This document shows, one piece after another, positions 1 through 61,954 of a DNA stretch of 64,000 nt. The notes under the pieces are model-generated. The model was not told the DNA's origin and ran no database searches. It saw only the letters and a list, made by a program, of their open reading frames with translations. The translations under genes and the position numbers were made by a program. The stretch's first letter is position 1, and the number at the start of each line of letters is the position of its first letter. Source of the stretch: Bryoerythrophyllum caledonicum (lineage: Eukaryota > Streptophyta > Bryopsida > Pottiales > Pottiaceae); contig OZ020516.1 of the NCBI GenBank assembly GCA_963971425.1, forward strand, positions 310,001 to 374,000, given 5' to 3'.

Positions 1-2029
1 TAGGGCTTGAGATAGCTTGGGGATAGCTCTCGTATGGGTTTGCCCGGATAGGTTCCGGGCCAGTCTCTCGAATTCCTTCTCGCTCTGTTTGCGGGGTGTC
101 CAAAGGTTCGGGATCAGAGGTCCCGAGATCGGTATCCAAACTAGAAATACTACTACTTCTACCCTCCGACCTTGCTAAAGGTCGGGACATTCTACTCCTA
201 TGCTTGTGACGATTGGTTCGGGTGGAACTGCGAGTACTAACCTTCTGGACTACTTCCTCCTTAACGCCTGGCTGTTCCACCTCCTCCCGTCATTTTGGGG
301 GGTGCTCCACCCCTTGAGTGTTGCCGTAGTTCAAGGCCGTCTGACTCCGGGGAGGGGTCTCCACCTGTTTGTATGTTACCTTTGGCACCGGCGGTTGTGG
401 ACAGTGGGGTGCGTCATGTCCATACTGCTGACAGTTCTGGCAAGGTAGCTCCAACGGTGCCCCTTGTCCACCTCTTCTTGGCTGGTCACAAGCATTAGCA
501 AAATGGTAGGGGGAACCGCAATTGTAACACACCGGCGTACCTGCTGGAACAGAGTACGGGGGGTACAACGTTGGGGTCGGGGCGTACGGAGTTACGCCTT
601 GGAAGGCCGGTTGCGGGTAGGCTGGTTGCTGAAAGGCCGGCTTGTACCCGAGTTGTCGCAAGGGTGGGTTGGTGGCTCGGTAGGTGGGAGCTGCACCTCG
701 TCCTCGGCCGTAGGAGGGGAGCACTTGGTAGACGGGGGCTTCTTCCTCTAATACCTCTTCCTCTTCTTCAGCCCAGTAGCTCGTCGTTCCGTCGGCGTTG
801 ACAAGGTGCACCCTCCTTGGTCCGTATTTTGGGCACTCCCGGTTGGCATGTCCGGCCTCTCCACACTTGGTACACCATACATTGTTTCGTACCGTAGGCA
901 TGGACCTTCGTGGTGTCGGGTTGGCCGCTAGGTTGTCCTTGATCGCCTCCATGGTGTCTCGGAGGCTTTTTAATACCTCCTTTGATTCTTGGGCTTCTAC
1001 CTTGACCTCCTTCAGCCGTCGTGTTGTTCTCTCGTCCGCTCGAGACATGTCTCTGTGGTGCGTGGTTTTTGCGGGGGTATCACTAGAGGATTCCTCACTT
1101 GAGGAAGAGCTGGAGGAGCTATCCTCCGAACTGGACGAGTCGCGCTTCGACTTCTTCTTCTTCTTCTTCTTGGTGTTGGTGGTGGCGTATTTGTCGCGCG
1201 ACTTCCTCATCGAGTGAAGGGAGTCCTTATAATCTTGGGCTGCATCTATGGCTTCTGCAAGGGTCGTAGGTTTGGCCATTCTTACCGCAAACCCCATAGC
1301 GGAGGGGAGGCCTCCGACAAACCACTCCTTCTACAATCTCGGGCTTCCCTCCGTCGCACACTTCTTGATGAGGCTCTTCACTCTCTGGCTGTACCTGCGC
1401 ACCAGCTCTTTGTCCTTCATGGTGATCTTGTTCAACCGACTTAGAGCACGTAATTCTCCTCCCGATTCGCGGAAAGCTTGGATGAAGTGGTCCTTGAGCT
1501 CCTCCCAATCTGCCTTCACCTCGTCCGACAACCCATAGTACCAATTGAAAGCTTCGCCCTTCAACAACCCGGGAAAGACCCGAAGTCGCGAGGCATCATC
1601 CTCTTGGTTGGCCATGGCAATTGTCTCGAACTCCCCGAACCATTCATCGACGTCCGCCTCTCCATTTCCTTTGAACGAGCTATATCTCAGGCGGGTCGCG
1701 GGTCGAGCCATGGTGGCGGGTGTTTCGCCTTCTTGGACCTCTTGGTATTCAAAGTTGAATGAGGTGGCCTGTCCTAGGGGGCTTACTTCAAAGTTTTCTA
1801 AGAAGGGCTCAAAAGATGGAGTTAGAGGTGGCGTGTCACTCCCTACATAAGTGTGTACTTCCAGGATGTCTACTAGGGGACTTACGACCCTTACTCCTCT
1901 ACTTGGCCTACGGGTTGGGGTATTTCTAGGACTAGGTTCGGCAAAGAAGGGCTGGCTTCCTCGTCTTGTACCTCTATTTCTACGTTGGGACCGACGTACT
2001 TCTATTTCGCTAGGTTCTTCCTGACTCAT
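1..2029 (-). pseudogene. gag: Gag polyprotein of giant-LTR retrotransposon A, broken by two nonsense codons, runs off window
   Basis: Structural capsid/nucleocapsid protein of an LTR retrotransposon read on the minus strand from ATG at 2029. A single frame stays open from 2029 to base 1 except for a TAG at 1331-1333 and a TGA at 290-292. The first ~110 residues are polar. Residues ~110-230 have the retrotransposon Gag look (WYYGLSDEVK, then FRESGGEL and RRYSQRVKSL). A Lys/Ser/Glu-rich stretch follows, then three CCHC zinc knuckles: CTKCGEAGHANREC (about 830-871), CYNCGSPYHFANAC (about 490-532) and CQNCQQYGHDAPHC (about 403-445). Three knuckles is more than usual for Ty3/Gypsy Gag. No protease or reverse transcriptase of this element is in the window. 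The primer site and LTR lie directly upstream. Being a degraded Gag is near certain; lineage within Ty3/Gypsy is inferred. Confidence 0.85.
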
Positions 2030-2564: not shown

Positions 2565-2582
2565 TCCCCGGCAGCGGCGCCA
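2565..2582 (-). promoter_or_regulatory. tRNA-Asp type primer-binding site of element A
   Basis: The minus strand reads TGGCGCCGCTGCCGGGGA. The 3' end of plant tRNA-Asp, CCA included, would pair with TGGCGCCGTTGCCGGGGA, so there is one mismatch in 18. It lies five bases from the inferred LTR end at 2588, the normal place for a minus-strand primer site. It fixes the direction of element A and proves that the sequence at 2588 and above acts as a 5' LTR. Confidence 0.85.
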
Positions 2583-2832
2583 CTTCGTGTCGCAGTACGT
2601 GTGGCAAGTATTCACATCTTAACACAAAGATACCCTTAAGGTAATCGTTCCCACAGAGAGTCACCGAGAACTACAACGACTAACATCAAGCCAAAAATCT
2701 ATACAATGTCGACTATACAATCGGTATATCAAAAGAAAGGAGGGAATAAAGGTTTAGATCACAAAGCCTGGGTGTTAATTACACCAATTCCCCATTCTTC
2801 GTACGCGTGTTGTCTCCTTGTACGTCGTAGGT

Positions 2833-2965
2833 CGTACATTCGTACGTCCTACATTCGTACGTCCTACATTCGTACGTCCTACATTCGTACGTCCTACATT
2901 CGTACGTCCTACCTTCGTACGTCCTACCTTTGTACGTCCTACCTTTGTACGTACTACCTCGTACG
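2833..2965. repeat. 15-bp tandem repeat (unit TACATTCGTACGTCC) in LTR A
   Basis: Eight to nine head-to-tail copies of a 15-bp unit centred on the palindrome CGTACG, drifting to CCTTTGTACG at the far end. It sits in the 3' part of LTR A, where the related LTR at 51.45-51.7 kb carries a different array. Confidence 0.9.
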
Positions 2966-5083
2966 GGTAGTAAAGACTTCTATTACTCAAACCTTAGATT
3001 GGATCTGAGACTTATAGTAACACCTATGCACAATATGGACAGCCTGAGTACATGCGTACTCGGCAAAAGGGGGGGGGGTTGTATTACCACGGATGTTGAT
3101 CCGAGGACTCACAGAGATTTTAGTGTTTGACACAAGTAACAGAGACTCTTCCTCCCATTCTCTCCTTCTACCTCTACTCACTCACTTGGATGGTTATGGC
3201 GTCACTGAGATTTTCCCCCGAGGGGGGTGTTAGACCCGTGTTTCCAAAACTGTGAGTGGCGTAATGTAAATGAGCAAAGGGCCTACCCGCCCACTATCCG
3301 TCCTCCTCTCAGTCTCCCTCCACATCCAATGCGGTTGGAGGTAAGATGTTCAGGGGATGATACGAGTCTTCACAACCGACACCAATCGGTACGCCGGAAG
3401 GTCACTCAAGACTCATAAGGACCCTTATCCATCCGTCACTCCCCCCTCGTCCTTCCCTAGACACGTACAATCTCACCTGTTATTCCCATCCACCCCAACT
3501 ATTCTACTTGATGGAACAAGGAAACAACTGTAACGGTTTAGAGTTAGAGTCATGCCCCTACTAACTATCCTCTCACCTCACCTGTTATTCCCATCCACCC
3601 GGACTAATCTACTTGATGGAACAAGGAAACGATGATTAGATAATTAGTATAGACTTGAGGAGTGGACTACTTGAAATGGCACTCACAGTCATGTATGCAA
3701 TCCGAGCTCTCCAACCTTCGAAGGTCTTCTCAGAGCGTAGGTTTAGAATTAACACTGAAAGCAAATACACACATCAAGCAGTGAAGAGAGGTGCCTCGAG
3801 ACTCCTCTCTTATACTGCCAAGGACTCACACAAGAGTCCAAACTCAAAAGATACCTAAAACGGCGCATTAACTACTCTTGGCGGCGGTGGCCGCCACTAC
3901 TCACGACGTGCACCTTCAGAAGGTGACTTATTACACAAATCCCAAGGCAAAAACCAAGTCAAAACCAAAGTCAACCCGGGGCCAAATCCCGGAATGAACA
4001 GTGACCTACGAAACAAGATCCTTACCCTATAGACGTAAGTTTCTACCTACCCTGCGCCAACTCCTTGAGCCTCTTCTTCTCCTCCTTCCTTCTACGTTTC
4101 TTGGAGCTTCGACTTGAAGACGGGGTGGGTGCGACCGTAGCAAGTGTCATCAAAGGTGCCAAAGTGGCATCCGTGGGCTGAGTCGGAGTGGCAAATGAAC
4201 GGGACACGGTTTCTCTTGAAGAGAAAGTGGTGGCCATCCCGGTGGAGGTAACGGGTAAGGATACTAGAACTGGAGGAAACTCGGACCGAGATGGAAGAAT
4301 TGATACCTGGGTCGGAGTTGTCATGATATCCGGGCCGGATGTAAGAACCGGGAGGTGCCAAGGAGAAGAACTCTCACTGGTAGTCTTTCCAAGGGGAAAG
4401 ACACTCGATAAAGGTGCCATAATTAGCGTAGAGCGAACGGTGTCACCTCGGGGTGGCTGGCGATGACGGATCGAGGGTGGAGGTTCCACCCCTGCATCTG
4501 AGCTCTCCTTCCATCCACTCTACGTCTGGGTGGTGATTTCTGAAGGAGAGGGCCTCGCCGGAATCCTCGAAGGTCGTACGAGAGGAGATGGACTGTCAAG
4601 GTCCACCACAGCTTTCCCCTTGTTGTTTCCCGTACCACGATCTTCCGTATCGGAGTCCGAATCTCCGTCCTTGCTTGAGCTGTCGGAGTCATCCACGAAC
4701 TTGGGTAAGATATGTGTGAGGTTGCTTACCAATAACCTCATGCTGGCATACGCCTCCTCAACCTTCATGGTTTGCTCTATCATGAATGCAATCACCCTCT
4801 TGCTCGAAACGTGGTCATCTCTCTCCAACCTAGCATCGAACATCCGGGCCTTGAGTACGACATCTGCAGGTAGGTGCAGGGCATCCTCCACTCGTTGAAA
4901 TGCCTCCGCGGAAGCATTGGCTTGGAGAAGAGCTTCCTTCTGCCTCTTCTCTGCCTCCAAGGCCCGACTCTTCATCTTGGTCATCTCCAAGGTGAGCCGG
5001 TGGACCTTCTGTTCCATACTACGGAGGTCGCTCGCTCCTCCTATACTTTCCTTGACCGCCGCGACTAGTCCTTGGATGGGTGG

Positions 5084-7195
5084 TGTGAGCCGCAAAAACG
5101 GCTCACGGTGATGAATGGACCTCACGTCGGGTCCATTAAGGCTAATGAGTGGTGAAAATGGGTTATCCCATGGACTAGCTCGTGGTTTTTTGATTAAAAT
5201 GGCCAAGTGGCCTTTCCCCTCACTAAAAGAGGAGCCATTTATGGGCAATCGCGGAATTTATGTAGTTAGCCAAAAAGGAAGAAAAAAAAAGGGAATAAAC
5301 CAGAAAAGAAAAGCAAAGAGAGAAGGGAAAAAAGACAAAAGAAAATTAGAAAAGAATTAAAATGAGTAGTGGTGGAGAAGAATTTACCCCCTATCGAGTT
5401 GTAGACCGTATTCGGTCACGATGAAGAAATTACGAAACCAAAAAAATAGGAGAAGAAGGAGGATGGTGAGGAGAAAAGAAAAAACAATGAGGCGTTAAAA
5501 GCCCTTAAAAAATAGTCAAAGGGTCCAAAAAGAAGTGGAAAAAAAATCCTCACCAATCACTAAGTAAATTAGGAATTCCCCCAAGCAAGGGAAATTCAAG
5601 CTAGGTAGAGTTAGATTTTTTTTGCATCCTTAAATTTAGCCTTATAGCTCACTTATTGAGATCATGCACACACATGTGGCATGGAGTCAAAGTTTAGATT
5701 TACATATTCCTTGGTTAGTAGGACACCCACTTGTGTTAAATGCAAGGGTGGCTAGTGATTTATTAGCTTTTAGTTACTAGTTGTTTAGTGTGACCATTAA
5801 TGTGCCCACCCAAAATGGCGGCTGTGAACGACGAAGGGAACGACCTTGGGAACAAAGAAGGGAGCAAGGGCCTTGGGGTTACCCCCTTGGAGGGCGCTCA
5901 TTCGAAAAGTGGGAGGTAGGAGTTAGAGAGGTGTGTGGTAGGAGCTAGGAAACCGAGAGAGGTGTGTAGAAGTGAGAGAGAGGTAGGGTTCCAGATTTCC
6001 CCCTCCTGTGGGCTGGAATGTGATTCAATCGTTACGAAAATTGAAGAGTAGATAGATTAGAACGTTGGCTTTCCAACAAGCTCAAGAACGTGCGGATTGG
6101 AGCTGTGACGACGAAGATACGGGCGTCGGGGCGAGGACGACCAGCTGGAGGAGCGGTGGCGGATCTCATACGGCCTCAGGTTTTCCCTCGTCAGTAGCGG
6201 AGTTCTTGTCCAATCGAGCTAAGATTTTAGGACTAGATAGATTAGAGCGTTGGCTTTCCAACAAGATCAAGAACATATGGATCGGAGTTGTGACGACAAA
6301 GATACGGGCTGTGGAGTGAAGAACACCAAGAAGAGGAGGACGACCACAGCACAAGAACGACCACGAACACGGCAGAGGGTGAATTGAGCTAGATCAGGGA
6401 GCCTTCTTCCTCTCCCAATTGATTCATTATCCTCTTGATTGCATGTGGAGAAGGAACCCTAAATTTTCTAGTTACAAAAATCACGCGGAAGCGCTGCCAA
6501 ATTTTCACTAGGATTAGGGTTTGCTATCAACTCAACCAAACAATTGGTTTAATCCACAATAGTAAGTGAAGGCAGCTGGAGGCTCATGCATGGTATAGTG
6601 TTTGAGTAGGGCTACTTGTGTGAATGCATGTGGTATACACGTGAATTGTGGTGCACGATTTTGAATAAACATGTATGTTAAGTGCACTGCTGGTCGTTGG
6701 CTGTGAGTCCCGGATTGAGTCAACCGGTTAATTGAAGGCTGCCATCGTGTTAAGCAAGAAAAACTAATAAGAATACAAAAAACAAACGTAAAAAGCGGAG
6801 TCATAATCACGAAGATAATGAAGAATTAGACTTTTAATACAAAAAGAGGAGCATGTCTGCTGATCGCTGCTATCAGGGTCGCACTTGGGCCTGGAATTGG
6901 TGGTTAAGGTGCTAATCAAGTTCACAAGGCGAAATTGAACCTAATGGAGCTTTAAAACATTGGAAACGGAGCTTTGAGGCGGAATTTACGCTTGTCTAAG
7001 GGTTGGATTCAACCTAAGGCTGAATTCAGCCATCACATCACTAATTATTAACGAACCCTCTTAAGTGACCATGCCTTAGGTCATCATGCTTGTATGAATG
7101 GTTAAAGTATGGTTGCACAAGGGGCTGCATCCCATATGTAGGGTCTTGTGTTCAAGATAAGCCATCCCATTAGGGGGCGATTTATTTGGCTCACA
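5084..7195. mobile_element. Solo LTR, family TGTGAGCC...GGCTCACA, 2112 bp, in LTR A
   Basis: Starts TGTGAGCCGC and ends TTGGCTCACA, an 8-bp terminal inverted repeat. It is flanked by GGTGG at 5079-5083 and 7196-7200. Taking out the element and one GGTGG restores the coiled-coil region of the LTR-encoded ORF. No coding domain, primer site or polypurine tract is inside. The second copy at 12796-15558 is collinear with it over its whole length. It contains two copies of a ~188-bp repeat. Confidence 0.93.
6047..6330. repeat. ~188-bp internal repeat, two copies, in the 2.1-kb solo LTR
   Basis: The unit starts near AGATAGATTAGAACGTTGGC and includes GAAGATACGGGC and GTCAGTAGCGGAGTTC. Two units are seen here, beginning near 6047 and 6234; the second is partial. 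The sister copy at 12796-15558 holds about five. Confidence 0.85.
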
Positions 7196-8284
7196 GGTGG
7201 ATTACCCACCAAGCTACTCACATGTGCCAAGGTCTTGTCGGTGTCCTCTACGTATACCCGCAGGGCCTCAATGAGTTCAGATGCCCGGTAAGTCTTGTCT
7301 CCGAGGTGTGCGGGCCCTGTAATTGCTGCGCGGAGTGCGGCTCGGGTCCGAGTGGCAGGGGCTCCTCCTTCTCTCCTTTTCTGACGCTTGGGGGTGAAGG
7401 CGCCTCTTCTGCTGATGGGGAGGAGGTGCTTCCTCCCTCAGAACCCGACTCGTACTCCGACTCTGTCCCCTGGAACTTCTTCATCATCAAATGGGTCCCG
7501 TACGTCGTTGTCTCTTCTGGCGTGGTCTCCTTGAAGTGATGATAGAGGTGGATCAAGAAGGGACAAAGAGGAGATCGCTTGGCATTGCTAACACTCTTGG
7601 TCAACCGGAGTACTACGTCCTTCACAATGATGGCCCAATTTACCATCCTCTCTCCTAAATACGATCCGTACACGGTGTTAGCAAGAGTCATGGTAACTCT
7701 CGCGGGTTTTTCAGGGTGTAGAATGGGTATGAGGAAAGCAAAGACCCGTCGGGCTCGAGAGTCTATGCAATCCTTCAAACCATAACCGTTCCTGGAGTCC
7801 TTGGTGTCGAATCGTCCCTTGCCATACTCCTCCTTCTTCAAACTCGTCCATCCTGCACCTTGTCGAGGAAACTCGTATACCTCCTGCCACTTACCCATAG
7901 TCCACCGGTCTGGGCAAGCCCGGATACTATCACCCTCAAGTTCCGGTAATGGGTCTTGCCTTAGTTCTTGCACGGTAGACTCGATGCAAAAACTCCAACA
8001 AGAGTTAAAGAGGGAGAGACATCCCATGCGAAGGAGGTCCTCCTTGAGTTCGGTAAGCTCGAGGGGATCCTTGGGGATGGCGGGGGAAATGGCCTTTACC
8101 GAAGACAGGGTCGGGTTGGAGGAAGCCATGACCCCTCCCTTGTTGCTAGACGTCCTCCGTCTTTCCTTCCTCCGCCTCGTGCACAACCTCCGGGCTCTCG
8201 TCCTGCGGACACCTTGTACGTACCTTTCTTACCTCGCCGGCTTGGATTTCCTCCGAGGGTCGTTTCTTCCTTAGGCAGCCTCCT

Positions 8285-8620
8285 GGTTCTTGTGTACAAG
8301 CTGCTCGTGGTCGGGTTCGCCTCCGGGCTCCTGTGTACAGGCTGCTCGTGGTCGGGTTCGCCTCCGGGCTTGTGCAAACAGCGTGCTGGTGGTCGGGTCG
8401 CCTCCGGGCTTGTGCAAACAACGTGCTGGTGGTCAGGTCACCTCCGGGCTCGTGCAAACAGCCTGGTCGTCGTCGAGTCGCCTCTGGGCTCGTGCAAACA
8501 GCCTGGTCGTCGTCGAGTCGCCTCCGGGCTCGTGCAAACAGCCTGGTCGTCGTCGAGTCGCCTCCGGGCTCGTACAAATAGCCTGGTCATCGTCGAGTCG
8601 CCTCCGGGCTCGTCCTGATT
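8285..8620. repeat. 40-bp tandem array in LTR A
   Basis: About eight copies of a 40-bp unit containing CGTCGAGTCGCCTCCGGGCT and CGTGCAAACA. The unit length is not a multiple of three, so the frame changes from unit to unit. It lies just upstream (minus strand) of the LTR-encoded ORF and shares the core CCTCCGGGCTCG with the next array. Confidence 0.9.
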
Positions 8621-8877
8621 CTAGTCTACTTCCTGTTGACTCTCTCTCTCTCTATGTCACGGTGTAGAGCTGAAGGGGAGAGTTTGTTAAGTAGTCGGTG
8701 TTGGTGCGACTATGAAGATTCCTTCTGCCCGCGGTTGAAGCATCCGCTTCTCTTCCTTTCGCTCTTGCTTTCCAGGTTGTATTCTTGATCTCCTTATCTT
8801 GAGTACGATTGTAGTCTCCAGGTTCCTCGTTGCCTTTTCCCACTAGATGGACAGCCTTTACGTAGTGATGGCCAGTT
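8621..8877. other. Non-repetitive spacer between the two arrays of LTR A
   Basis: About 250 bases of unique sequence with a short CT run (8640-8656). I see no ORF or motif worth calling. Confidence 0.4.
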
Positions 8878-9440
8878 CAGCCTCTGGGCTCGGGTATGAA
8901 CTAGCCTCCGGGCTCGGGTAGGAAGTAGCCTCCGGGCTCGGGTATGAAGTAGCCTTCGGGCTCGGGTAGGGAGTAACTTCCGGGCTCGGGTATAGGCAGC
9001 CTCCGGGCTCGGGAAGGGAGCAACTTCCGGGCTCGGGTATGGGCAGCCTCCGGGCTTCGGTAGTAGCAGCCTCCGGGCTCGGGTATGTAGCAGCCTCCGG
9101 GCTCGGGTATGTAGCAGCCTCCGGGCTCGGGTATGTAGCAGCCTCCAGGCTCAGGTATGTAGCAGCCTCCGGGCTCGGGTATGTAGCAGCCTCCGGGCTC
9201 GGGTATGTAGCAGCCTCCGGGCTCGGGTATGGGAGCAACCTCCGGGCTCGGGTAGGGAGCAACCTCCGGGCTCGAGTATGTAGCAGCCTCCGGGCTCGGG
9301 TATGGGCAGCCTCCGGGCTCGAGTATGGGCAGCCTCCGGGCTCGGGTAGGGAACACCCTCCGGGCTCGGGTAGGGAGCAACCTCCGGGCTCGAGTAGGGA
9401 GCAGCCTCCGGGCTTGGGTATGTAGCAGCCTCCGGCTCGT
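8878..9440. repeat. 24-bp tandem array in LTR A
   Basis: Twenty or more units of about 21-24 bp built on CCTCCGGGCTCGGGTATG followed by TAGCAG, GGCAG or GGAGCAAC. Because the commonest unit is 24 bp, three minus-strand frames stay open and give spurious repeat proteins (PSPEAATY, PEPGGCYI, RARRLLHT). Confidence 0.92.
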
Positions 9441-9707
9441 CCTTCTTATTTTTAGGATACTTAAGCAATCCTCACTAATGGTTTTTCTTAACCTATCTAA
9501 TAAACTATACTAAAGTAGTATTAACCCAACCCCTGAGCTTATTAAGCTAAGATTATCATAATTAACTTCCTAACCTAGAAAATTTGAAAATTCGTGGTAC
9601 GACATATACATGCAAGTAAAATGATGTGGCTACCAAATTACAAGTCCAACAATGCAAAATCATTTGAGAAAGATATGGATCAAAGTAAATTAGCCTAAGA
9701 CTCAGTT

Positions 9708-14600: not shown

Positions 14601-14609
14601 TGAAGAGCA

Positions 14610-33800: not shown

Positions 33801-35249
33801 ATACCCCTTACATGATAGACCAGAGATCAGGCCGTACGCCGGGAAATCCGAAATAGTCCACATGAGCAACCCGCGTAGGTTGAAGCGTCGAGACCCCACG
33901 GGTTGGCTGAAATCCTGTGCTGGTACACCTCGCCAAAGTTGCTGTAGCTCGTTCAACAATGGGCGCAGGTATACATCAATGTTTGTCGCCGTGGGCGACC
34001 GCTTCCCCGAAATCAATATGCACAATGATATGAAGAACTTCTTCGTAACAAACCACGGCTCCAAGTTATAAATCAATACCAGCACTGGCCACGTCGACCA
34101 GTTTGTGTTGCTCAACTTGAAGGGATTTACACCGTCAAGTGCTAAAGCAAGTCGCATGTTTCGGTCCTCACGTCCGAAGATGTCAAACGCAGCGTCCGTG
34201 TTGATGTGCTTCCACGCGGGACTGTCAACTACAGATCGCATAACTCCATCGTCACTAACATGTTTTTTGTAACCGGTCAACATGCTTGCAATCTCTGGCG
34301 ATCTCCACATTCGTTGAAGCCGCGGAATGAGAGGGAAGTGTCTTATCACCTTTGCTGGGATGGAAGTTGTGCCCTCCAACCATCTAGACTTCGAACCCTG
34401 TGGGCATGTCACCAACTCTGCATGATCATTCTCATACAATACAGAGCCATCTGGACAAGCATGGATGTTGTTGTAGTCCAACCCCAACCTCCGAATTGTC
34501 TTTGCGGCGGCATAATGAGTGTTGGGCAGCTTGTTGTCCTTCGGTAGTAAATCCTGTGCCAAGTACCTGAACAATTCGGTTCTGAAAGTGTTGCTGACCC
34601 CAAACACAACACACATGTTCATCAGAACGATTGTAGCAGAGACAACGCTGGTTTTTGCTCCTGGATACACTGGTGTCGTGGCTTCCGCATACAAGTTCTG
34701 CAGTTCATCAACTGTGTCGCTATCGAACTCATCATTGTCTACCACATTGGGTTCGCCTCCTGCATCCCTGTGTAGTGCATCACCACGATCCAAAGCATCC
34801 ATAACCTGGCGCTGGACGTCGTAAAACTCATCGAGTAGTATGGCGTCTGCGTTGACATCATCCCTTCTAGGGACATCGTGAACAACATCGTCGGGGACAT
34901 CATCAGCGTCAGCTGTGCCACCATCATGTACAACGTCGTCATCGTATCCAACATCCTCCACCCATATACCCTCCGGTGGATACCCATGAGGCGGGTCACC
35001 CCCGATGATGGACTTAGTCAAAAATGGGTCTCTGCCAATGGCTACGAGGTGCTCTCGGATGACAGCGATTCTCTGGCGTCGACCCCCATGGCAGGTTTGG
35101 CAAGGGCAGTAAAATGATGATATGTTTTGCGTCGTTGCCACTCGTAGCTCTGTCTGGAGGATAAGGTCCGCAAGCGGGATGTGACGCATTGTCCGCCCAT
35201 CAGCATCAATTCGAATCGTTGCGCCATGGCGGCACCGCTGTGTACTCAT
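30875..35249 (-). CDS. TNP2-type CACTA transposase, four exons, apparently intact
   Basis: Excises and reinserts the element. Exon 1 35249-33465: a transposase-associated N-terminus with CPCQTCHGG, then the TNP2 core (FRTELFRYLAQDLLPKDNKL, CPDGSVLYENDHAELVTCP, FPLIPRLQRMWRSPEIA, DSPAWKHINTD, LALALDGVNPFKLSNTNWS, CKGYKGCPCCGPQTDAC). Exon 2 33245-32898: LKVRHILDVMHCEKNLCENI. Exon 3 32596-32043: DUF4218-like (VAIRNVFGEEVRVAI, VHCRWMYPIERYMKTLKDY). Exon 4 from about 31840 to 30875: DUF4216-like (YRNHCTTVLLCEWI, FSMANFNHMDN). Exons 1-3 join in phase 0 at GT/AG sites. The last junction (donor GTGAGT at 32042) fits an acceptor TTAG near 31839. I see no stop or frameshift in about 1,200 codons, unlike every other transposon gene here, so the element may be young or active. 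It ends TAG TAA. Confidence 0.85.
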
Positions 35250-44284: not shown

Positions 44285-45400
44285 ATGAAGTCTGTGCCGA
44301 TGGCAAAGATGAAGAGGACGGATAGAGATGGGCGCGGCCGGAGAGACAAAGAGCCGGCAGTTGCGCTCCCTCCCTTGACCCGCGTTCGTCCGGAAATTCC
44401 AACAGACCCGAACGAGTACAGCATGCTGAAGGAGAGCCTGAAGTTTATGGGTTGCGAGGGTTTGCTCGAAGTTGCGTGGGGCATCCGGGAAGAGGTCAAC
44501 ATCCGGGAGCTTGTAGGGACGCCGGACGAGAAATACAAGGGGCTGATGAGAGCCCATCCGGAACTCCGGGGAGTTCCGGAATGGTCACAGGCATACGACT
44601 TCCGAGTCGGCCGCACCAAGGTGGTGGAAAGGCGGGACGAGTTACTGGCGGAGGAATTCGGGGGACCAGCGGATCCAAAGGATGGCTACAACCTGCAGGA
44701 CCTTCGGCACGTGGATGCCAAGCTCGTGCTAGGGTTTTTAAACCCTATCTTCCTTCTAGAAAAGCCGAGATGGGTGGTGGCAAAGTGGGCCTGCACTTTC
44801 CTCGGAGCACTCCGAGGAGAGATCGTCGTGGACTGGGGAGCCTTGATGATCGAGATGATCAACCGTCTAGTGGCCAATCTCCAGAAGGTGAAGAAATCCG
44901 CAACACCTCTAGCCTCGTATGTGGTGCACCTCTACTGTCACCAGCAGCAAACTCTGACGGAGGTCAGGAAGTACGACGAAGTTCTTAACTTCCAGAACTA
45001 TGGAGGGGACGAGTCGGAGGAGGAAGAATCCGGAGGGAAAGAGCCTGTGCCGGAAGCGACGACCATAGGCACTCCGGAAGGTCAGAGGGCTCCAAAGAGA
45101 CCTCGGGAGAAGGAGCCCGAGCCTAGAGTCCGGGCATACGTAGCTCCTCCGCGTCGTCCGGAGTAGACGAGTCCGGACCCTCAACGGGGACCAGCCGGAA
45201 GAGGAGGAAGGTCGACAAGGATGACTCCAAGGGTCAGCTTAAGTTGATGGACAAGCTCACCCACGAGATCGACTCGAGAGTTGGCCTCCTTAAGGAGCCA
45301 ACTACGTCATCACCACCAGCGTGGACCAGATCTTCCAGAGTCTAGATGTCGACCGGTTGGAGGACGCCATCAACAGGGTGGAAGAACTCCAGAGCAGGGA
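44285..45400 (+). pseudogene. LTR-type ORF copy C, N-terminal part (split by the solo giant LTR)
   Basis: Same unknown family as the ORFs in LTRs A and B, more diverged. Starts MKSVPMAKMKRTDRDGRG at 44285. The conserved N-terminal domain is present: SMLKESLKFMGCEGLLEVAW, VPEWSQAYDF, DPKDGYNLQDL, VLGFLNPIFLLEKPRW, GEIVVDWGALMIEMINRLV, SYVVHLYCHQQQTL, then acidic DESEEEESGG. The frame stops at 45164; the homologous reading continues after a frameshift near 45150 (KRRKVDKDDSKGQLKLMDKL) and another near 45300 (NYVITTSVDQIFQSL, DRLEDAINRVEELQSR). It meets the solo LTR at 45401. Deleting 45401-51933 continues it as ETDTKALHTQISSMYK. Whether this copy belongs to an LTR or is a stand-alone gene is open. 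Confidence 0.75.
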
Positions 45401-45410
45401 TGTCGTACCC

Positions 45411-46029
45411 CAAATTTTAAAATTTTTGTAATTAGTTACTTAGGAAGGGTATCATCGTACCACCTTATAAAGTTTAGAGGTAAGTAGCCTCCTAGTAGTG
45501 ACTCTTAGGAAGAATTAGAATAGGAAAGAAATAGGACCCTGGGGAATTGCTAAAGTAGACAAGTAGTGGTTTAACACCAGGTACTAACACCCTAGCCTAG
45601 AGGGTAATTGAAAGGCTTGGAGGAGGAGGCTCGGCCGTGTAAAGCTTGCAAGGCCACGGGGGTTGGGAGACCTCATCCCAAGGAGGCTCTACCGGCAACA
45701 GGAAAAGAGCTCCACCGACACCGGCAAGGATGATCCACCGGCACCGGCAAGGAAGCCCCACCGGCAACGGCAAGGAAGCTCACCTAGGCCCTAGTATAAG
45801 GAGCCGGGCATTGGAGAGCTCCACATTACACAACAAGGCGGCTAAGAGTAGCTCCGAGCTAGATAGGTCCGAGCAAGGCTAGTAGCGACCCCGGGAGAAG
45901 AGCTGGATAGGTCCGAGCTGGAGAAGAGCCTGGTAGGTCCGAGCTGTGAGGGAGCCACCGAGCCGAGTACACCGCATTGCCCTCTCACGCTGGGCAGCCA
46001 ACAGTCGAACGTGAGAATGTATAGTCACC
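45411..46029. other. 5' part of LTR B
   Basis: Non-coding; contains a short repeat of CACCGGCA/GGCAAGGA type near 45690-45780. It corresponds in position to 9200-9604 of LTR A but is poorly conserved beyond the first 20 bases. Confidence 0.5.
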
Positions 46030-46495
46030 AACAGCAGGTCTGAGCACGAAGGTGGTAAGTCCAAGCACGAGCTGTGTAGGTCCAAGCACGAGCTGTGCAG
46101 GTCCGAGCAAGGCTGGTGGCGACCCTGAGCACGAGCTGTGCAGGTCCGAGCACAAAGGTGGTAAATCCGAGCACGAGCTATGTAGGTCCGAGCACAAGCT
46201 GTGCAGGTCCGAGCACGAAGGTGGTAAGTCCGAGCACGAGCTATATAGGTCCGAGCACGAGCTGTGCAGGTCCGAGCACGAAGGTGGTAAGTCCGAGTAC
46301 AAGCTGTGTAGGTCCGAGCACGGGCTGTGCAGATTCCGAGCAAGGCTGGTGGCGACTCCGAGCACGAAGGTGGTAAGTCCGAGCACGAGCTGTGTAGGTC
46401 TGAGCACGAGCTGTGCAGGTCCGAGCACGAACTGTGCAGATCTCGAGCACGAGCTGTGTAGGTCCGAGCACGAGATCACGAAGCAGGTGGCAGGT
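46030..46495 (+). repeat. 21-bp tandem array in LTR B
   Basis: About 20 units of GTCCGAGCACGAGCTGTGCAG and the variant GTCCGAGCACGAAGGTGGTAA. The 21-bp period keeps one plus-strand frame open into the following ORF (repeat protein with CRSEHE motifs). It occupies the place of the 24/40-bp arrays of LTR A although the sequence differs. Confidence 0.9.
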
Positions 46496-46720
46496 CCGAG
46501 CTCGGGGATGTATCTCCCACAGCAGCCAAGCACGAGCACGAATTATGTTCTAGGTCCGAGCCTGGTGCTGAACCAAGCCAGGGGTTGTATCACCACCGAC
46601 GACAAGAATGGTGCGGGGAATCCAAAGGTAAGTGAGGTCCAAGCTGAGAGTACCTACCTCTACCGAGGAGTACGACCTAGGGCAGGAGAGAAGAAGACCA
46701 AGAGAGGAAGTCTTGACAAA

Positions 46721-49700
46721 ATGACCTCCATTACCAAGGAGGTCTCTCCCACGATCCCAAGAGACCTGCTCAAGCTCACTGAATTGAAGGAAGACCTCCT
46801 TCTAATGGGTTGCCTCTCGCTTCTAGACTTGTGCTGGAGTTTTTGTATAGATTCCACGGTGCAGGAGCTACGACAAGATCCACTACCAGAGCCCGAGGAG
46901 AGTAGGATCCGAGCTTGCCCAGATCGTTGGACCATGGGAAGATGGCAGGAGGTGTACGGATTCCCGCGATAGGGGGCGGGCTTCACGAGTTTGAAGGAGG
47001 AGTACCCCAAGGGGCTCTTTGGTACCAAGGATGCCAAGAATGGCTATGCTTTGCAAGATTGCCAAGATCCTCGGGCGAAGAAGGTTTTCGCTTTCCTCGT
47101 GCCAATCTTGCACCCGGAGAAACCTACCTGAGTCACGATCACTCTGGCTAACACCCTCTATGGTGCCTATTTGGGAGAGCGGATGGTGAATTGGGCGCTT
47201 ATCATGAAGGAGGTAGTGATGAGGTTGATGAAGAGTGTCAATAGCACCAGGCGCTCCCCCATTTGCCCATACCTCATCCACCTCTATCACCACTTCAAGG
47301 AAACCACTCCGGAGGAGGCTATGGCGTACGGCACGCAGCTGATGATGAAGAAGTTTGAAGGGACGGAATTGGAGCCCGAGCCTGGATGAGAAGGAGGGAG
47401 TAGCTCGTCGTAGTCAGAGGAAGAAGCCCTTCCACCTCCCAAGCGCCAACAACCGAGACAGGGAGGAGCACCTTCAACCCGGACTAGAGCTGCTAAACGG
47501 GCAGCCGCTACGCGATTAGCACAACTCGGGGGGAAGACTTACCGTAAATCCGAGTTTGTAGAGGCTCTTTGCGTGTATGTGGACGATGTAGACAAGACCT
47601 TGGGCCAGTTGGGCAGCGTGCTTGGCAATACCTCTTACCAAAAATTAGTCGCCGTGGCCAAGGAGAAGATAGGAGGAGCCGGTGACCTCCGCTTTATGGA
47701 ACAAAAGGTGAACCGACTCACTTTGGACATGACCAAGATGAAGAGCCGGGCCTTGGAGGCAGAGCGGAGTTGCAAGGAGGCCCTTCTCCAAGCCAATGAA
47801 TCGACCTCGGCGTTGCAGCAGGTGGAGGAGGCATTACACGTTCCGGAAGGTAGTGATGAAAGCAAAGATGTTTGTTGCGAGGTTAGAGAGGGATGGCCTC
47901 ATTTCGAGCAAGAAGGTAATTGCATTCATGATGGAACAAACCGTGAAGATCGAAGCGGCGTATGCAAACATGAGGTTGTTGGTAAGCAACCTCACCCATA
48001 TCTTACCAAAGTTCGTGGAGGATTCGGAGGGTTCGGACACGGAGGGCGACTCGGGTTCGGATGCGGATTCGGAGAAGTAGAACTCGGGTGATGTAGAGCC
48101 TAAATCCTAAAAATAGCTTTTTTCAGAAAATTAAGTGTAAAAAGGGTTGTAGATATATGGAGAATTAAATAATTAATGATTAAGTTTACAGTAAGCACTT
48201 AAATAAGTGAAAAGTACCTCTTCATATCTAAGATAGAAGGATTAATGGAAAAAGGGTTGAACTCGCACCCTTTGGGAAGGGCGTACCCTTTCATATCTAG
48301 ATATGAATAGATGTGAGGATTTAGTGGAATTAATCTCAATGGTTAATTATAGGCAAAACCGTTTTTCCAAGAGGTGTGCCTCTTGGGTTTGAGTAGAATG
48401 ACTAGCTTGAATTTTTAGCATTCTTGGCCATTACCATAGAAATTCCTTGGAGGAAGGTTGGAGTGAGCCCTAGCTTAGGTGAAAAAGCTAGTAATTGAAG
48501 AAATCTCTTATATTGTAAGAGAATTATGTGATGTGTGAAATTATTAATATATAATTATTATTGAATTTGCGTGTGTAGAGTCTTGTGTGTGACTTGAATC
48601 ATATGTATAATTATAATAATATTTGAACTTCATTGAATAAATTTAATATTGTGTTTTGTGAATGCAATTGTATGCATGAGGTATTAATTGTGAATAAATT
48701 CCTATGCATAAATGCATTAATTATTTATTTAGATCTTCATTGTAAAAATTAGGAAACTATCCTAATTAATTATGTGACATGGAATTGTGTGTGTCTGTTG
48801 ATGAATTAAATTTAATGTATTACATATGAGTGAAATATGAATACTTAATAATATTAAAACTTCAAGAGATAAAGTTAGGGAAGATCCTAACTAAGTCAAA
48901 GTGACATTGTGAATATTAATGTAATAATTCTAAGTGTATGTAAGGCATTTAGAAATTAATTTGGAGTAAGAAACTTAATGCATTAATGTGAGTAATGCAT
49001 AAGTAATTGATGAAATACTTAAGTTCAGGTGTGGAAACTTAAGTATTAAGACATAAGACGGGAGTCTTGTGCATGTGTAAACAACAAAACTTAAGTCCAG
49101 AGTGAGAAAGAACTTAAGTATTAACGATAGGACTTAAGTCTGAGTGTTAGGACTTAAGTCTAGAGTGATGGAAAACTTAAGTCTGAGTTACAGAACTTAA
49201 GTCATGCAAGTGTAAGAGTGAAGATACTCTTTCTGCATTTCAGTGTTTAGGATTAAATAGATAGGTTAGACTTAAGTCCGGATTGAGAGTAGAAATATTT
49301 AGAGGCTTAATCTAACTTGTATGTTGTTCGAGACTAAAACTTGTGATAAGTACGTGAGTACGTGAACCGTGGGATGTACGTGAGAAGTGGAGCGAATTAC
49401 ACGAGGTAAGTTCGTGAATTCTAAATGGAATTAATTAAGGAATCAACCATGAGTGCAATGAATAGTATCCAAGAGCCGAAGATGGCAAAAGTATAGGAAA
49501 CTAACAAACGTGCATATTCATAGTTAACTCAGGAGCAAGGCTCTACCTAAGCACTTAAATCCTTGGGATTAATACCTTAAGAGTGGAATGTTAAGGGTGA
49601 TATGTTTTAAGGCTTAATTCCCTAAAAACGAGTGCATAAACTTAAGTATTTCAATGGAAAGATAGCTTTTTGACCTATAATTAAAGACAAATTACTTAAC

Positions 49701-50424
49701 GGTTGACGCTAGTCCATCCCGGGAAGAATTTAGAATCAAGGGTAGATTTGTGTGAGTCTTAGGTGTTTTGCGAAGGTGAATTTTCCGAATTACAGGTGAC
49801 CAAGGACTTCCGCCGTGCAAGGGAGTGATTGACCTCGATAGCCCTGTCCCCCCTTCTCGAATTCCCCCTGTGGAAGTTACCATTTGTCCTTCCCCTTCAG
49901 ATCTCACCACACAGGTGCAAAGTGGAAGAAAGGATAACTTGGATGCTACGATGGAGCCTCCACGCACGACCCTCATTCATCAGTTTTCCCTTGGAGACCC
50001 CGTTCGTACCACACCAATTGTTGCTCCTTCACCAGGTATGTCTCCGTTTGGGAAGAGCACGAGTGAGAGTTCGGCCTACTTACACCTTCCAGTACGGGCT
50101 GAGGTTAAGTTGGCACACACCTCCATACCACAAATCTTCATGGGGACCCCGGGCCTCGTACCGACCCTTCCGGCCCGGTCCGAGCCTCATCGAAGCACGA
50201 CTTCCGTGCTATTCACTCCGGGTGGTCCGGATGTCTCCTTGACTTCGATGGAAGCCCTACCTCGGTCCTCCATGGCTGGATTGGCACCATCTTCATCTGC
50301 CGATTTGCTTTCACCTCTTCTGACACTCGCAAAGGTTGTAGCAAATCCGACTTTGAGCAAGAGCGCGAAGAAGCGGAAGAGGAGGGAAGAGAAGAGAAGA
50401 CTTGAAGAGATGACCCGGAAGTAG
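46721..50424 (+). pseudogene. LTR-encoded ORF copy B, unknown function, split by a 1.7-kb solo LTR
   Basis: Starts at MTSITKEVSPTIPRD (46721); the frame is open further upstream through the 21-bp array. Order as in copy A: ELKEDLLLMGC, WQEVYGFPR, TKDAKNGYALQDC, AFLVPILHPEKPT, LGERMVNWALIMKEV, YLIHLYHHFKETTPEE, KRAAATRLAQLGGKTY, VDDVDKTLGQL, coiled coil MEQKVNRLTLDMTKMKSRAL, KKVIAFMMEQT, LLVSNLTHILPKFVEDS; after the insert VIDLDSPVPPSRIPP, Ser/Pro-rich, and basic SAKKRKRREEKRRLEEM. Breaks: TAG after FPR (46970; copy A has Gln there), TGA after KPT (copy A Arg), TGA after EPG, TAG in the Ser run, one frameshift near 47850, TAG after DADSEK (48076). Removing 48092-49799 joins the ends in frame. 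Confidence 0.8.
48092..49794. mobile_element. Solo LTR, TGTAGAGCC...GAATTACA, 1703 bp, in the ORF of LTR B
   Basis: Flanked by GGTGA at 48087-48091 and 49795-49799, with TGTA/TACA at its ends. Deleting it and one GGTGA takes the ORF in frame to GDQGLPPCKGVIDLDS. The interior is AT-rich, with ACTTAAGT recurring many times at 49020-49290. No coding domain. The family is distinct from the other solo LTRs. Confidence 0.92.
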
Positions 50425-51445
50425 GGTGAGAATCGTTAGTTGGTAGGTCACTGTTCATTCGCGGACTAGGCCCCGTGTTGACTTTGGGTTTTGACTTGGT
50501 TTTGCCTTGGAATATGTGTAATAAGTGACCTCTGACGGTGCACGTCGTGTGAAGTGGCAGCCATTGCCGCCAAGAGTAGTTAATGTCACCGTTAGAAGGT
50601 ATCGTTGAGTTTGGACTCTTGTGAGAGTCCTTGGCAGTATAAGAGAGGAGCCTCGTGGCCTCTCTCTTCACTGCTTGATGTGTGTATTTTCTTTTAGTTT
50701 AATTCTAAACCTATGCTGTGAGAAGACCTTCGATGGTTCGAGAGCTCGGATTGCATACATGACTGTGAGTGCCATTTCAAGTAGTCCACTCCTCAAGTCT
50801 ATACTAATTTTCTAATCACTGTTTCCTTGTTTCATCAAGTAGATTAGTCCGGGTGGGTGGGAATAACAGGTGAGGTGACAAGATAGTTAGTAGGGGCGTG
50901 ACTCCAACTCTAACCCTTACAGTCGTTTCCTTGTTCCATCAAATAGATTAGTTGGGTGGATGGGAATAACATGTGAGATTGTACGTGTCTAGGGAAGGAC
51001 GAGGGGGGAGTGACGGAGGTATAAGGGTCCTAGCGAGTCTTGAGTGACCTTCCGGCGTACCGGTTGGTGTCGGTTGTGAAGACTCGTATCATTCCCTGAA
51101 TATCCTACCTCCAGCCGCATCGGATGTGGAGGGAGACTGAGAGAAGGACGGATAGTGGGCGGGTAGGCCCCTTGCTCACTTACATTACGCTGCTTGCAGC
51201 CTCGGAAACACGGGTCTAACATCCCTTTGGGGGGATCTCAGTGACACCATAACCATCCAAGTGGATGAGTAGAGTTAGAAGGAGAGAATGGGAGGTAGAA
51301 TAGCTGTTACTTGTGTCCAACGCTAAAATCTCTGTGAGTCCATGGACTACCGTCCGTGGTGATATCATCTCAATCTGGGTATTCGTGTACTCCGGATGTC
51401 TATAGTGTGCATAGTTGTAAAGATAACTCCCCCCTTCTCTTCACC

Positions 51446-51710
51446 GGGGCTAAGTCGAAGTAGGCTCCTATCCGAAGGTCCCTACCTTTCGAGCGAAGTA
51501 GGCTCCTACCCGAAGGTCCCTACCTCCGAGCGAAGTAGGCTCCTATCCAAAGGTCCCTACCTTCTGAGCGAAGTAGGCTCCTACCCGAAGGTCCCTACCT
51601 CCGAGCGAAGTAGGCTCCTACTCGAAGGTTCCTACCTTCCAAGCAAAGTAGGATCCTACCCGAAGGTTCCTACCTTCCGAGCAAAGTAGGCTCCTACCCG
51701 GGGGAAAACA
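51446..51710. repeat. ~36-bp tandem array in the 3' part of LTR B
   Basis: About seven units of CGAAGTAGGCTCCTACCCGA plus AGGTCCCTACCTTCCGAG, each with GTAGGCTCCTAC as an internal palindrome. Same place in the LTR as the 15-bp CGTACG array of LTR A. Confidence 0.9.
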
Positions 51711-51928
51711 CTCGTACGGAGAGCAGGGAAATGTAGATAACGCTCAAGCATTGTAATCTAACATTTTTTCCTTCTTTGCTTTGATGTAATTATTGTGATA
51801 TAGGTAACATTGTGTACATATAAATTGATTCTTAGTTGTTGTAATTCACGGTGATTCTCTGTGGGAACGATAACCTTAAGGGTATCTTTGTGTTAAGATG
51901 TGAATAGTTGCCAACACGTACTACGACA

Positions 51929-52690
51929 AGGGAGACGGATACGAAGGCGCTGCATACCCAAATTTCCTCCATGTACAAAGCCAACACGGAGATGGAAAAG
52001 AAGGTGAAGCACTTTCTCGCAGAGGGAGCTCTGGCGGTGACGGCCCGGAAACTGGCTGAGGCAAAGGCCAATGCTTCCGCAACTACCTTGATAGAGGTCT
52101 GGATGGCCCCGAAATTCCGGGTTGACGTGATCAACCGGAGTCGACTCTTCACTGAACTGGTGGAGAAGAAGGAGAAGGTTACCAGGGCCAACATCATCCG
52201 GTTCGTCCTAGACCAAGCGGAGAAGATGGGCCGCACGTGGGAGCAGATGAAGTTGTTGGGCGACAACGTTGCTGAGGTACTTCCGGAAGCCCCAGCAGTA
52301 CCAGTGCCGGAAGAAGCGACGACCCCGGAACGGACCACGGCTCCTCCGGAACCACCGGTCAAGACAACTCCAACCCCGGGTACCTCAGCGAATCCGGAGT
52401 CTTTCGACACTCCATCACCTCGGACACCGGCGGAGGGTATCTTACCTTCCAATCCGAGTACGAGTGAGATCCTGAAGAAGCTTCCGGATCTGTTGTCGCC
52501 GCCCAACATGTGTCTGCCAGATCCTCCGGCAGAAGGCGTTTTCCCGGTACCACCAAAGTCCTTGTCTCGGAGGTTGGCGTCTGGGCCAAGGAGTCCGTCC
52601 GGAAGCTACAAAAACTTGGTCTGGGAGACCTGGTCAGCTTTTGAGACGGAACTACCAGCACCGCCTGTTCCGGAAGGTTCATCGGAGTAG
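51929..52690 (+). pseudogene. LTR-type ORF copy C, C-terminal part
   Basis: Continues copy C after the solo LTR: ETDTKALHTQISSMYKANTE, EMEKKVKHFLAEGAL (coiled coil), WMAPKFRVDVINRSR, KVTRANIIRFVLDQAEKMG and EQMKLLGDNVAEVLPEAP, which aligns with KKVIAFMMEQT and LLVSNLTHILPK of copies A and B. The tail is Pro/Thr-rich (TPERTTAPPEPPVKTTP) and ends VPEGSSE at 52690; it lacks the basic tail of A and B. This part is open without stops. Confidence 0.75.
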
Positions 52691-57747: not shown

Positions 57748-58157
57748 TAGAACACCATATTCGTTATTTTGGGAGATTTTCAACCTCCCAATTTAATGAC
57801 AGTTTAGGTCGAGTCCACCTAAACTATACCCACAGATTAGATACTTCACCGAAACTGGACAAGACAACCAACCGTCGAAATATTCAAATGGCCATAACTT
57901 ACTCAGATTTCGTTCAAATTGGGCATATGAGGTGTTTTTTGACATCTACAAAAAAACTAGATGTCAAAAAACACCTCATATGCCCAATTTGGACAAAATT
58001 TGAGTAAGTTATGGCCATTTGAAAATTTAGACGATTGGTTGTTTTGTCTAGTTTCAGCGATGTACTCAATCTGGGGGTACAGTTTAGGTTGACTCGACCT
58101 AAACTGTATTTTCCCAAAATCATGGAATTTTCCCATTATAACGAATATGGTGTTATA
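57748..58157. mobile_element. Fold-back/MITE-like inverted repeat, about 410 bp
   Basis: The left arm (from ATAGAACACCATATTCGTTAT) and right arm (ending ATAACGAATATGGTGTTATAG) pair almost throughout. The centre is at 57948-57962 (GACATCTACAAAAAAACTAGATGTC), giving a very short loop. Within each arm AGTTTAGGTCGA/TCGACCTAAACT forms a second, smaller palindrome. Minus- and plus-strand transcripts would both fold into a long hairpin. No transposase. The arms are nearly perfect in the inner 150 bp and looser outside, so it may be young. Confidence 0.85.
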
Positions 58158-60436: not shown

Positions 60437-60740
60437 ACCTGGTTGATCCTGCCAGTAGTCATATGCTTATTTCATTATATTGTGACATGCACGTGTATGT
60501 ACTGTGAAACTACGAATGGCTCATTAAATCAATTATAGTGGCTTTGATGGTACCTTGCTACTCAGATAACCATAGTAATTCTAGAGCTTATACATGCACA
60601 AACTCCCGACTCGGCTCGCCTGGGAGAGACATATTTATTAGATAAAAGGCCGATGCGCGCTTGCCTGGTATTGCGGTGAATCATAATAACTTGTCGAATC
60701 GCACGGCCTCTTGCGCTGGCGTTGTTTCATTCAAATTTCT
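60437..60740 (+). pseudogene. 18S rRNA pseudogene, 5' ~300 bases only
   Basis: Starts exactly at the 5' end of 18S rRNA (ACCTGGTTGATCCTGCCAG) and follows it through ATGGCTCATTAAATCA, ATAACCATAGTAATTCTAGA, TTTATTAGATAAAAGG and ATCGCACGGCC to CATTCAAATTTCT. It carries many substitutions and a ~20-base loss after ATATGCTT. Similarity stops abruptly at about 60740. No ITS, 5.8S or other rDNA is nearby, so it is a dispersed, diverged copy, not a working gene. Confidence 0.9.
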
Positions 60741-61954
60741 TGAACCAGCGTCGGTACCGACGCTGAATGTTTTCCACCATTCGGCTGCACTATAAACCTA
60801 ACTGAAGTCGTTGTTTCATTCGAAGTTTATGGTTGATTTGTGAGTTGAGGCCGATACTTGTTACGTGAGATGGAATACTTGTTAGGAAGATGTTGTTATG
60901 TGAGTCTTGAATGCATTTCAACCATCCAAGGCGTTGAGTAGAATTCGTTGCGTCTGCACTGACGCACCTGCCCTCCGGATTCTTTTCAATGAGGAACTCA
61001 ATAGATTTATTGCATTAGATTCATTTGCCGTTTCATTGAATGAGTACTTCTCTTTCAAAATATGATCATCTGGTTAGTTAGTTTTCTTTCTTATGATCAT
61101 TAGTCAGCCTCATATGGGCTCGTCGGTACCAACAATCTTCCTTCGCAGATCAGAAATAACCAAGAAATGACTCAGGATTATTGAAAATGCTTTAGAGGGT
61201 CCAAGTTCACATTAATGTTCCGTCAAGATGCTGATTCTGCTTTCATTGTATGAATATTTTGTTGAAATGAATTGATTGTAAGAAGCACCACCATGATCGT
61301 CGGTGCCGACGTAGTCATTTTCTATTTAGTTCATCACAGTAATGTTCGTTTGATCTGCAAATTGTACTAGTTGTATTGGTCAACATTAGCCTAGTATTAT
61401 TGTACTAGTTTAGGTTCACTAGAAATGGCGCTTCAAGCTCAAATGAATGGGGGTCCGCGATCCCTTCCTTTGTGAGCGCATTCCCGAGTAGATCCTCATT
61501 GTGAGATGCCAACTAGTCCCCCCGGAAGCTGCAGCAAGGGTGCCGTCCTCTCCAATGTGTGGCGGCTACTACTTCTAGGGTGGTGACCGTAGTTGACGCG
61601 TTTTTTCAGACTGAGCTTCCGCCACTACTGGCAACCGTGTTGGTGCCGGGGCTTCCACCGTGCCAAGGGAGCCCGTTCTTTGAGGAGGCACTAGAGTACG
61701 TGAAAAATGTGTAATGAGTATATAGCCGCTCCCAGAGTAGCGTCGGTGCCGACGCTTTTTTTTGGCAGCCCATCCATACCCATTTGAACTGTGTATGGAT
61801 TGCCTGAGATTATTTGGAAAAATTCATATAGAGTTCTCAAGTTGAGGTAGATTCTTGTCTGGTATTTGCCTCTGCTCTCGTCACATTACATTGTCAACCT
61901 ATGTCGAACTGTGTTGCTTAGAAACTAATTTTGATATGACCCAAAATCCAAGTC
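60741..61954. other. Non-coding stretch with three CGTCGGTRCCGACG palindromes
   Basis: AGCGTCGGTACCGACGCT at 60747-60764 and AGCGTCGGTGCCGACGCT at 61739-61756 are 18-bp palindromes (the second with a central G). CGTCGGTGCCGACG at 61298-61311 is the same core. A partial form CGTCGGTACC occurs near 61120. The last one is followed by T8. No gene recognised. Confidence 0.75.

What the first reader, a model, noticed from the sequence alone, without database searches (positions are those of the whole stretch)
45401..51928. A ~650-codon protein is encoded entirely inside a giant retrotransposon LTR
The solo LTR B is bounded by TGTCGTA...TACGACA and by AGGGA duplications and contains the complete ORF 46721-50424. 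The 5' LTR A (2588-9604) has the same ends and the homologous ORF, and is followed directly by a tRNA-Asp primer site and gag. So the ORF lies in the 5' two-thirds of a 4.8-4.9 kb LTR and would be present twice in each full element. LTR-encoded proteins are rare (the U3-encoded gene of mouse mammary tumour virus is the textbook case); I know of none like this in plants. The product (N-terminal domain, acidic linker, coiled coil, basic tail) suggests a nuclear oligomer, perhaps acting on the LTR or its transcription; that role is inference.
Basis: partly seen in the sequence, partly recalled or inferred. Interest (0 to 1): 0.88.

Follow-up and report, generated by a model that had tools for sequence, protein, structure and literature searches.

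The report
Retrotransposon gene inside its terminal repeats
A family of jumping genes carries, inside the long repeats at its ends, a conserved protein gene with its own apparent promoter, so that copies reduced to a single repeat still keep the gene.

Summary
The LTR is real and carries a protein gene. LTR B (45401-51928) has TGTCGTA...TACGACA ends and exact AGGGA duplications. LTR A (2588-9604, minus) is followed after 5 bp by a tRNA-Asp-type primer site, gag and pol; its 3' partner lies 6.7 kb on (19 mismatches in 3,741 aligned positions). Both A LTRs carry the ORF. Of 29 LTR/primer-site junctions in the genome, at least 9 belong to ORF-carrying LTRs, 4 to short ORF-less LTRs, 16 are undecided.

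The window's two ORFs are broken: B has five stops, a frameshift and a 1.7-kb insertion; A a frameshift, a stop and a 2.1-kb insertion. Open ~650-aa copies exist elsewhere (21 of the 67 best-scoring). Median dN/dS among 22 copies is 0.21.

A TATA box 206-236 bp after the ORF (19 of 22 copies), followed by a highly conserved stretch, puts the ORF in U3. A second TATA-like site upstream (21 of 22) precedes a 0.65-1.9-kb leader full of CGAGC repeats and poor in ATG. The protein (N domain, acidic linker, coil region, basic tail) matches no known family. A trans-acting nuclear regulator of the LTR is my inference.

The parts
45401..51928 (+). LTR B, a solo LTR; AGGGA at 45396-45400 and 51929-51933
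   Evidence: no direct repeat between its two ends
45795..45800 (+). P1: TATAAG of the putative ORF promoter
   Evidence: similar site in 21 of 22 copies; no transcript data
46036..46474 (+). 21-bp tandem array with CGAGC cores in the putative leader
46721..48091 (+). LTR ORF of B, first part, with stops and a frameshift near 47846
48092..49794 (+). Insertion in the ORF of B, GGTGA at 48087-48091 and 49795-49799
49795..50424 (+). LTR ORF of B, last part with basic tail
50637..50645 (+). P2: GTATAAGAG, putative promoter of the genomic RNA
50668..51180 (+). Putative R region, 92-94% identical between A and B from 50681 on; start inferred
51456..51718 (+). 37-bp tandem array near the 3' end of LTR B
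2588..9604 (-). LTR A, 5' LTR of a full element that continues left of the window
7201..8129 (-). LTR ORF of A, first part, with a frameshift near 7390
5084..7195 (-). 2.1-kb insertion in the ORF of A, GGTGG on both sides, ends TGTGAGCC/GGCTCACA; absent from A's 3' LTR
4052..5083 (-). LTR ORF of A, last part, with a stop
2565..2582 (-).
290..2029 (-). gag in two ORFs: Retrotrans_gag (1331-2029) and zinc knuckles (290-1297)

Best explanation
A Ty3/gypsy-type retrotransposon family, part of which carries an accessory gene in the U3 region of its LTR. SHOWN: the ORF lies inside the LTR; in the one element with both LTRs read it is in both; it has been under purifying selection; open copies exist; it lies upstream of the conserved P2/R block. 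SUPPORTED BY CONSERVATION ONLY: a separate promoter P1 makes an mRNA with a long CGAGC-repeat leader ending at the ORF, while P2 just downstream starts the genomic RNA. INFERRED: the product is a nuclear, self-associating protein supplied in trans that acts on the family's own LTRs, most likely raising their transcription or countering silencing by recognising the CGAGC array beside its gene. Because the unit is complete within one LTR, recombination to a solo LTR does not destroy it.
For: Element A has PBS, gag, RT/RNase H/integrase, a purine-rich AGAAGGGGGTAA before the 3' LTR, and the ORF in both LTRs. 29 LTR/PBS junctions in the genome, 28 with a 5-bp and 1 with a 4-bp spacer, reversed-pattern control 0. 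Of 16 loci with both LTR ends placed, 11 have exact 5-bp duplications and 4 match at 4 of 5. An ORF triplet on C2 is spaced 11,938 bp twice, about the LTR-plus-internal length of element A. dN/dS: A vs B 0.13, bootstrap 0.084-0.176 (493 of 500 replicates usable); 22 copies, 231 pairs, median 0.21, range 0.10-0.69. P2 206-236 bp after the ORF in 19 of 22 copies; P1 in 21 of 22. Leader ATG 73 observed vs 163 expected, CAT control 125 vs 154. CGAGC 28-54 vs 2-5 expected in five ORF+ 5' regions; 6-8 vs 3-5 in three ORF-less LTRs, which have CGAGAC arrays. A's LTRs are nearly identical yet share the same frameshift and stop, which fits supply in trans.
Against: No transcript, protein or binding data. 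ORF-less members of the family have PBS and gag, and element A was copied with its ORF already broken, so the ORF is not needed in cis. P1 was not found in A, and the P1 search pattern was loose. ATG depletion is moderate, the CAT control is also somewhat low, and the copies are related. The CGAGC arrays may be mere repeat growth. R is far more alike between A and the others than silent sites of the ORF, which needs exchange or constraint. ORF state of 16 of 29 junctions is unknown.
Confidence: 0.5

Rival explanations
1. The ORF is a captured gene that rides in the LTR without helping the element; selection seen in the copies reflects its own spread or an older role.
For: ORF-less elements with PBS and gag exist; element A was copied with a dead ORF; relatives of the protein occur outside these LTRs, such as 44285-52690.
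Against: Median dN/dS 0.21 persists in most divergence bins (0.12-0.34); conserved P1 and ATG-poor leader; the ORF is retained across lineages with near-saturated silent sites.
Confidence: 0.25
2. The 5-kb unit is an independent mobile element with LTR-like ends, and its neighbourhood to gag in A is an accident.
For: 15 of 16 loci with both ends placed are free-standing with 4- or 5-of-5 flanking duplications, none with a primer site.
Against: Nearly identical paired LTRs around gag-pol with a purine tract; 29 PBS junctions. The loci were chosen by similarity to B, itself solo, so free-standing units were favoured.
Confidence: 0.03
3. It is a protein of the gag or envelope kind, or a structural protein of the particle, expressed from the 3' end of the genomic RNA.
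For: A U3 ORF also lies near the 3' end of the genomic RNA; predicted coil and basic tail would suit a structural protein.
Against: No similarity to the element's gag pieces; no Pfam match. Membrane segments were not tested.
Confidence: 0.15

Closest known systems
Mouse mammary tumour virus sag (recalled; I found no passage to cite)
   Same: An accessory ORF in U3, hence present in both LTRs.
   Different: A vertebrate retrovirus; here a ~650-aa protein without Pfam match, an apparent own promoter and a repeat-rich leader.
Additional ORFs of plant LTR retrotransposons: Grande gene23, RIRE2, Retand ORF4 with PF04195
   Same: Extra protein of unknown role, some nuclear; gene23 is transcribed from its own promoter (PMC7264820, parts 1 and 2 of 3 read).
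   Different: Those treated there lie in the internal region; here sense and inside the LTR, without a PF04195 match.
VANC anti-silencing proteins of Arabidopsis VANDAL transposons
   Same: A transposon-encoded protein together with variable tandem motif arrays in the element's own non-coding DNA (PMC5735166, passages seen).
   Different: There binding and methylation loss were shown; here neither was tested, and homology to VANC was not tested.

Membership tests
Ty3/gypsy LTR retrotransposon | Paired LTRs, PBS, gag, pol in the order RT-RNase H-integrase, purine tract, short target duplication | tested here: met
   A's flanks GTATA/GCATA match at 4 of 5; a protease domain was not detected
U3-encoded accessory gene, as MMTV sag | ORF wholly within the LTR and upstream of the genomic transcription start | tested here: met
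   ORF in both LTRs of A; the start itself is inferred from P2 and the conservation edge, no transcript data
MMTV Sag protein family | Sequence homology | tested here: not met
   no such Pfam family for P0002-P0007 and the 44285 ORF at E up to 10; Sag sequences were not compared directly
Plant additional ORF with Transposase_28 (PF04195) | PF04195 match | tested here: not met
   not; not among the 25 of 54 families shown; remote fold similarity untestable
VANC-like anti-silencing factor | Sequence-specific binding to its own element's arrays with loss of methylation | not testable with these tools
   needs binding and methylation assays
Duplicated gag | Similarity to the element's gag | tested here: not met
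   each gag piece as a single sequence

The most novel reading that the evidence does not exclude
U3 holds a self-contained trans-acting regulator cassette: promoter P1, a CGAGC-array leader that doubles as the protein's target, the ORF, and promoter P2. Recombination between LTRs then does not kill the regulator but leaves it as stand-alone solo-LTR genes that go on supporting dispersed gag-pol copies, while ORF-less sister LTRs with CGAGAC arrays escape or exploit the system.
Probability: 0.2. Interest if true: 0.9.

Novelty: new variant of a known kind. Interest (0 to 1): 0.74.

Why it matters
LTRs are treated as control DNA and solo LTRs as dead remnants. Here solo LTRs include open copies of a gene that has been under selection, with an apparent promoter, so a deletion process would multiply stand-alone copies of an element's gene. 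Annotation that masks LTRs would miss such proteins. ORF-carrying and ORF-less LTRs with different arrays in one genome make the gene's role directly testable.

Tried and rejected
Short-LTR reading of B: rejected, no end repeats. Independent-transposon reading: taken seriously when 15 of 16 loci proved free-standing, rejected for element A after its paired LTRs and the junctions. B's 48092-49794 as an intron: rejected by eye, removal from GT to AG would not restore the frame, and other copies lack it there. Gag relative: rejected. No relative found in viral contigs or prokaryote genome contigs, no P2 motif in viral contigs. LTR ends for the gene at 44285-52690: none convincing. Known families: only weak coiled-coil and chance-level matches. 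Guessed 3' LTR places of three ORF-less elements (L049, L051, L053) showed no ORF. Literature: searches listed no LTR-encoded protein of this kind (open-licence PMC text, phrase matching only). PMC12037069 uses 'LTR ORF' for polyprotein ORFs (passages); PMC11963269 passages; PMC2276075 gave no passage. Not followed: whole-genome searches with gag DNA, the A piece (and repeats) and the 44285 gene did not complete.

Full report
WHAT IS THERE. LTR B (45401-51928) starts TGTCGTAC, ends GTACTACGACA and is flanked by AGGGA on both sides. Its two ends share no direct repeat beyond chance. LTR A is the same kind of sequence in the other orientation (2588-9604, minus). Five bases after its 3' end lies TGGCGCCGCTGCCGGGGA, the only such site in the window (0.01 expected), then gag. 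The LTRs align in blocks: 70-77% over the ORF, 87% over the 1 kb after it, 77% at the 3' end.

THE SECOND LTR. The window is G000:C3:310001-374000 of an unnamed 437-Mb genome. Reading on past the window's left end in separate stretches gives RT, RNase H and integrase, AGAAGGGGGTAA directly before a new TGTCGTACC, and a second LTR at C3:305872-299158. In four compared segments it differs from LTR A at 3 of 165, 11 of 1,080, 5 of 1,654 and 0 of 842 aligned positions, with one gap in the last. It carries the ORF with a frame change in the same region and the same stop. A's 2.1-kb insertion is absent from it, and it has a 1.8-kb insertion of its own in its repeat array. The outer flanks are GTATA and GCATA. 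So the paired LTRs are the long ones, and the ORF was already broken when this copy was made.

GENOME-WIDE. LTR end + 3-7 bases + TGGCGCC occurs 29 times, 28 with a 5-base spacer and one with 4; the reversed control gives none. Sixteen were found first with a stricter pattern: all 16 have LTR sequence upstream and 15 of 16 a gag match downstream, three of these partial. ORF state of the 29: present by sequence in 6 (A, and five of the ten stretches probed); present by position in 3 more, where an ORF ends about 1.2 or 1.8 kb before the junction or begins 8.3 kb after it, as in A; absent in 4, whose LTRs are short, 2.9 kb where measured; undecided in 16, including four probed stretches with neither ORF nor LTR sequence. 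One of these four has an open ORF 10.5 kb downstream of its junction, perhaps its 3' LTR. Twenty loci were fetched from the best matches to B. Both ends could be placed in 16: 11 have exact 5-bp duplications, 4 match at 4 of 5, 1 at 1 of 5; none of the 17 with a placed 3' end has a primer site within 60 bases (7 or more mismatches of 18). As B is itself solo, this choice favours solo LTRs; only 34 of 2,712 candidates were scored.

THE ORF. Database relatives P0002-P0005 are open, 631-777 aa, 73-77% identical to B's first part (8,000 candidates scored). In the genome 67 full-length matches were scored of 6,193 candidates and 21 of 67 have no stop (these are the best-scoring, so biased upward). 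Among 22 copies read here (20 fetched, A and B) 5 have no stop codon, 4 of them in one unbroken frame. dN/dS for A vs B is 0.13 over 629 codons; silent sites are near saturation and 334 of 613 differences are at third positions. For 231 pairs of 22 copies the median is 0.21 (0.10-0.69), with bin medians of 0.12-0.34 by synonymous divergence. Method: Nei-Gojobori with Jukes-Cantor correction, stop codons skipped.

WHERE IN THE LTR. GTATAAGAG lies 206-236 bp after the ORF in 19 of 22 copies; in one it is displaced to 1.9 kb, in two there is no exact match. Shortly after it A/B identity reaches 92-94%, against 46-66% in the last part of the ORF. In the 7 of 22 copies for which R was cut out by an exact motif, the 6 pairs with A differ at 64% of fourfold sites but 6.8% in R, the 15 other pairs at 23% and 7.1%. 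Exchange during strand transfer, or strong constraint, would explain this (inference). Upstream, 21 of 22 copies have AGT[A/T]TAA with CTCC at a core-promoter distance; A has none. The leader from there to the ORF is 0.65-1.9 kb with 17-69 CGAGC. In the 21 leaders ATG totals 73 against 163 in shuffles and CAT 125 against 154. Five ORF+ 5' regions have 28-54 CGAGC (2-5 expected); three ORF-less LTRs have 6-8 (3-5 expected) and CGAGAC arrays instead.

THE PROTEIN. The alignment of 24 members shows a conserved N domain of about 210 residues, an acidic Ser/Glu linker, a short basic patch, a coil-like region and a second conserved helical-looking stretch; P0002-P0005 end in a basic tail (secondary structure judged by eye). 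No Pfam, NCBIfam or PDB family matches convincingly. A search with distant members gave 51 proteins. One such relative, at 44285-52690 in the window, is split by LTR B; both its parts match the family.

HOW IT PROBABLY WORKS. I take the ORF to be an accessory gene in U3 expressed from P1, with P2 making genomic RNA. Each ORF+ LTR, solo or paired, carries the unit, so the product can be supplied in trans, as the recently copied but ORF-dead element A suggests. A nuclear regulator acting on array-bearing LTRs is my preferred role, by analogy with VANC (PMC5735166, passages). No binding, location or expression was tested.

COMPARISON AND NOVELTY. The location resembles MMTV sag (recalled). The plant additional ORFs in the review PMC7264820 (parts 1 and 2 of 3 read) are internal. 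My searches of open-licence papers listed no LTR-encoded protein of this sort; subscription papers could not be searched and phrase matching is blunt. I call it a new variant of a known kind: an ordinary Ty3/gypsy body with a coding LTR.

Noticed in passing
44285-45166 and 51934-52690: A distant relative of the LTR protein (about 32% identity in the first part) into which LTR B has inserted; its pieces lie in three frames, so it is itself decayed.
   Followed up: partly
L027:7324-8124: Another distant relative about 0.5 kb past the last aligned part of a different LTR copy; so 2 of 22 LTR copies lie in or beside family members.
   Followed up: partly
G000:C2:32747594-32773419: Three ORF copies spaced exactly 11,938 bp with identical scores, perhaps LTR-internal-LTR-internal-LTR; the sequence could not be fetched.
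   Followed up: partly
G000:C7:11844680 and C7:11896007: Two equal-scoring ORF copies on opposite strands 51 kb apart, perhaps an inverted duplication.
   Followed up: no
10378-21080: A separate Ty3-type element with 433-bp LTRs 97% identical, holding a copy of the insertion family also found in LTR A.
   Followed up: no
30875-35249: ORFs matching Transposase_21 and, below its cut-off, DUF4216 on the minus strand.
   Followed up: no
60482-60748: Partial match to eukaryotic small-subunit rRNA (72.8 bits).
   Followed up: no
57799-58107: Inverted repeat with 150-bp arms, 89% complementary, 9 bp apart.
   Followed up: no
51456-51718: 37-bp tandem array near the 3' end of LTR B; LTR A has a different array (GTACGAAGGTAGGAC type) in that place.
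   Followed up: no
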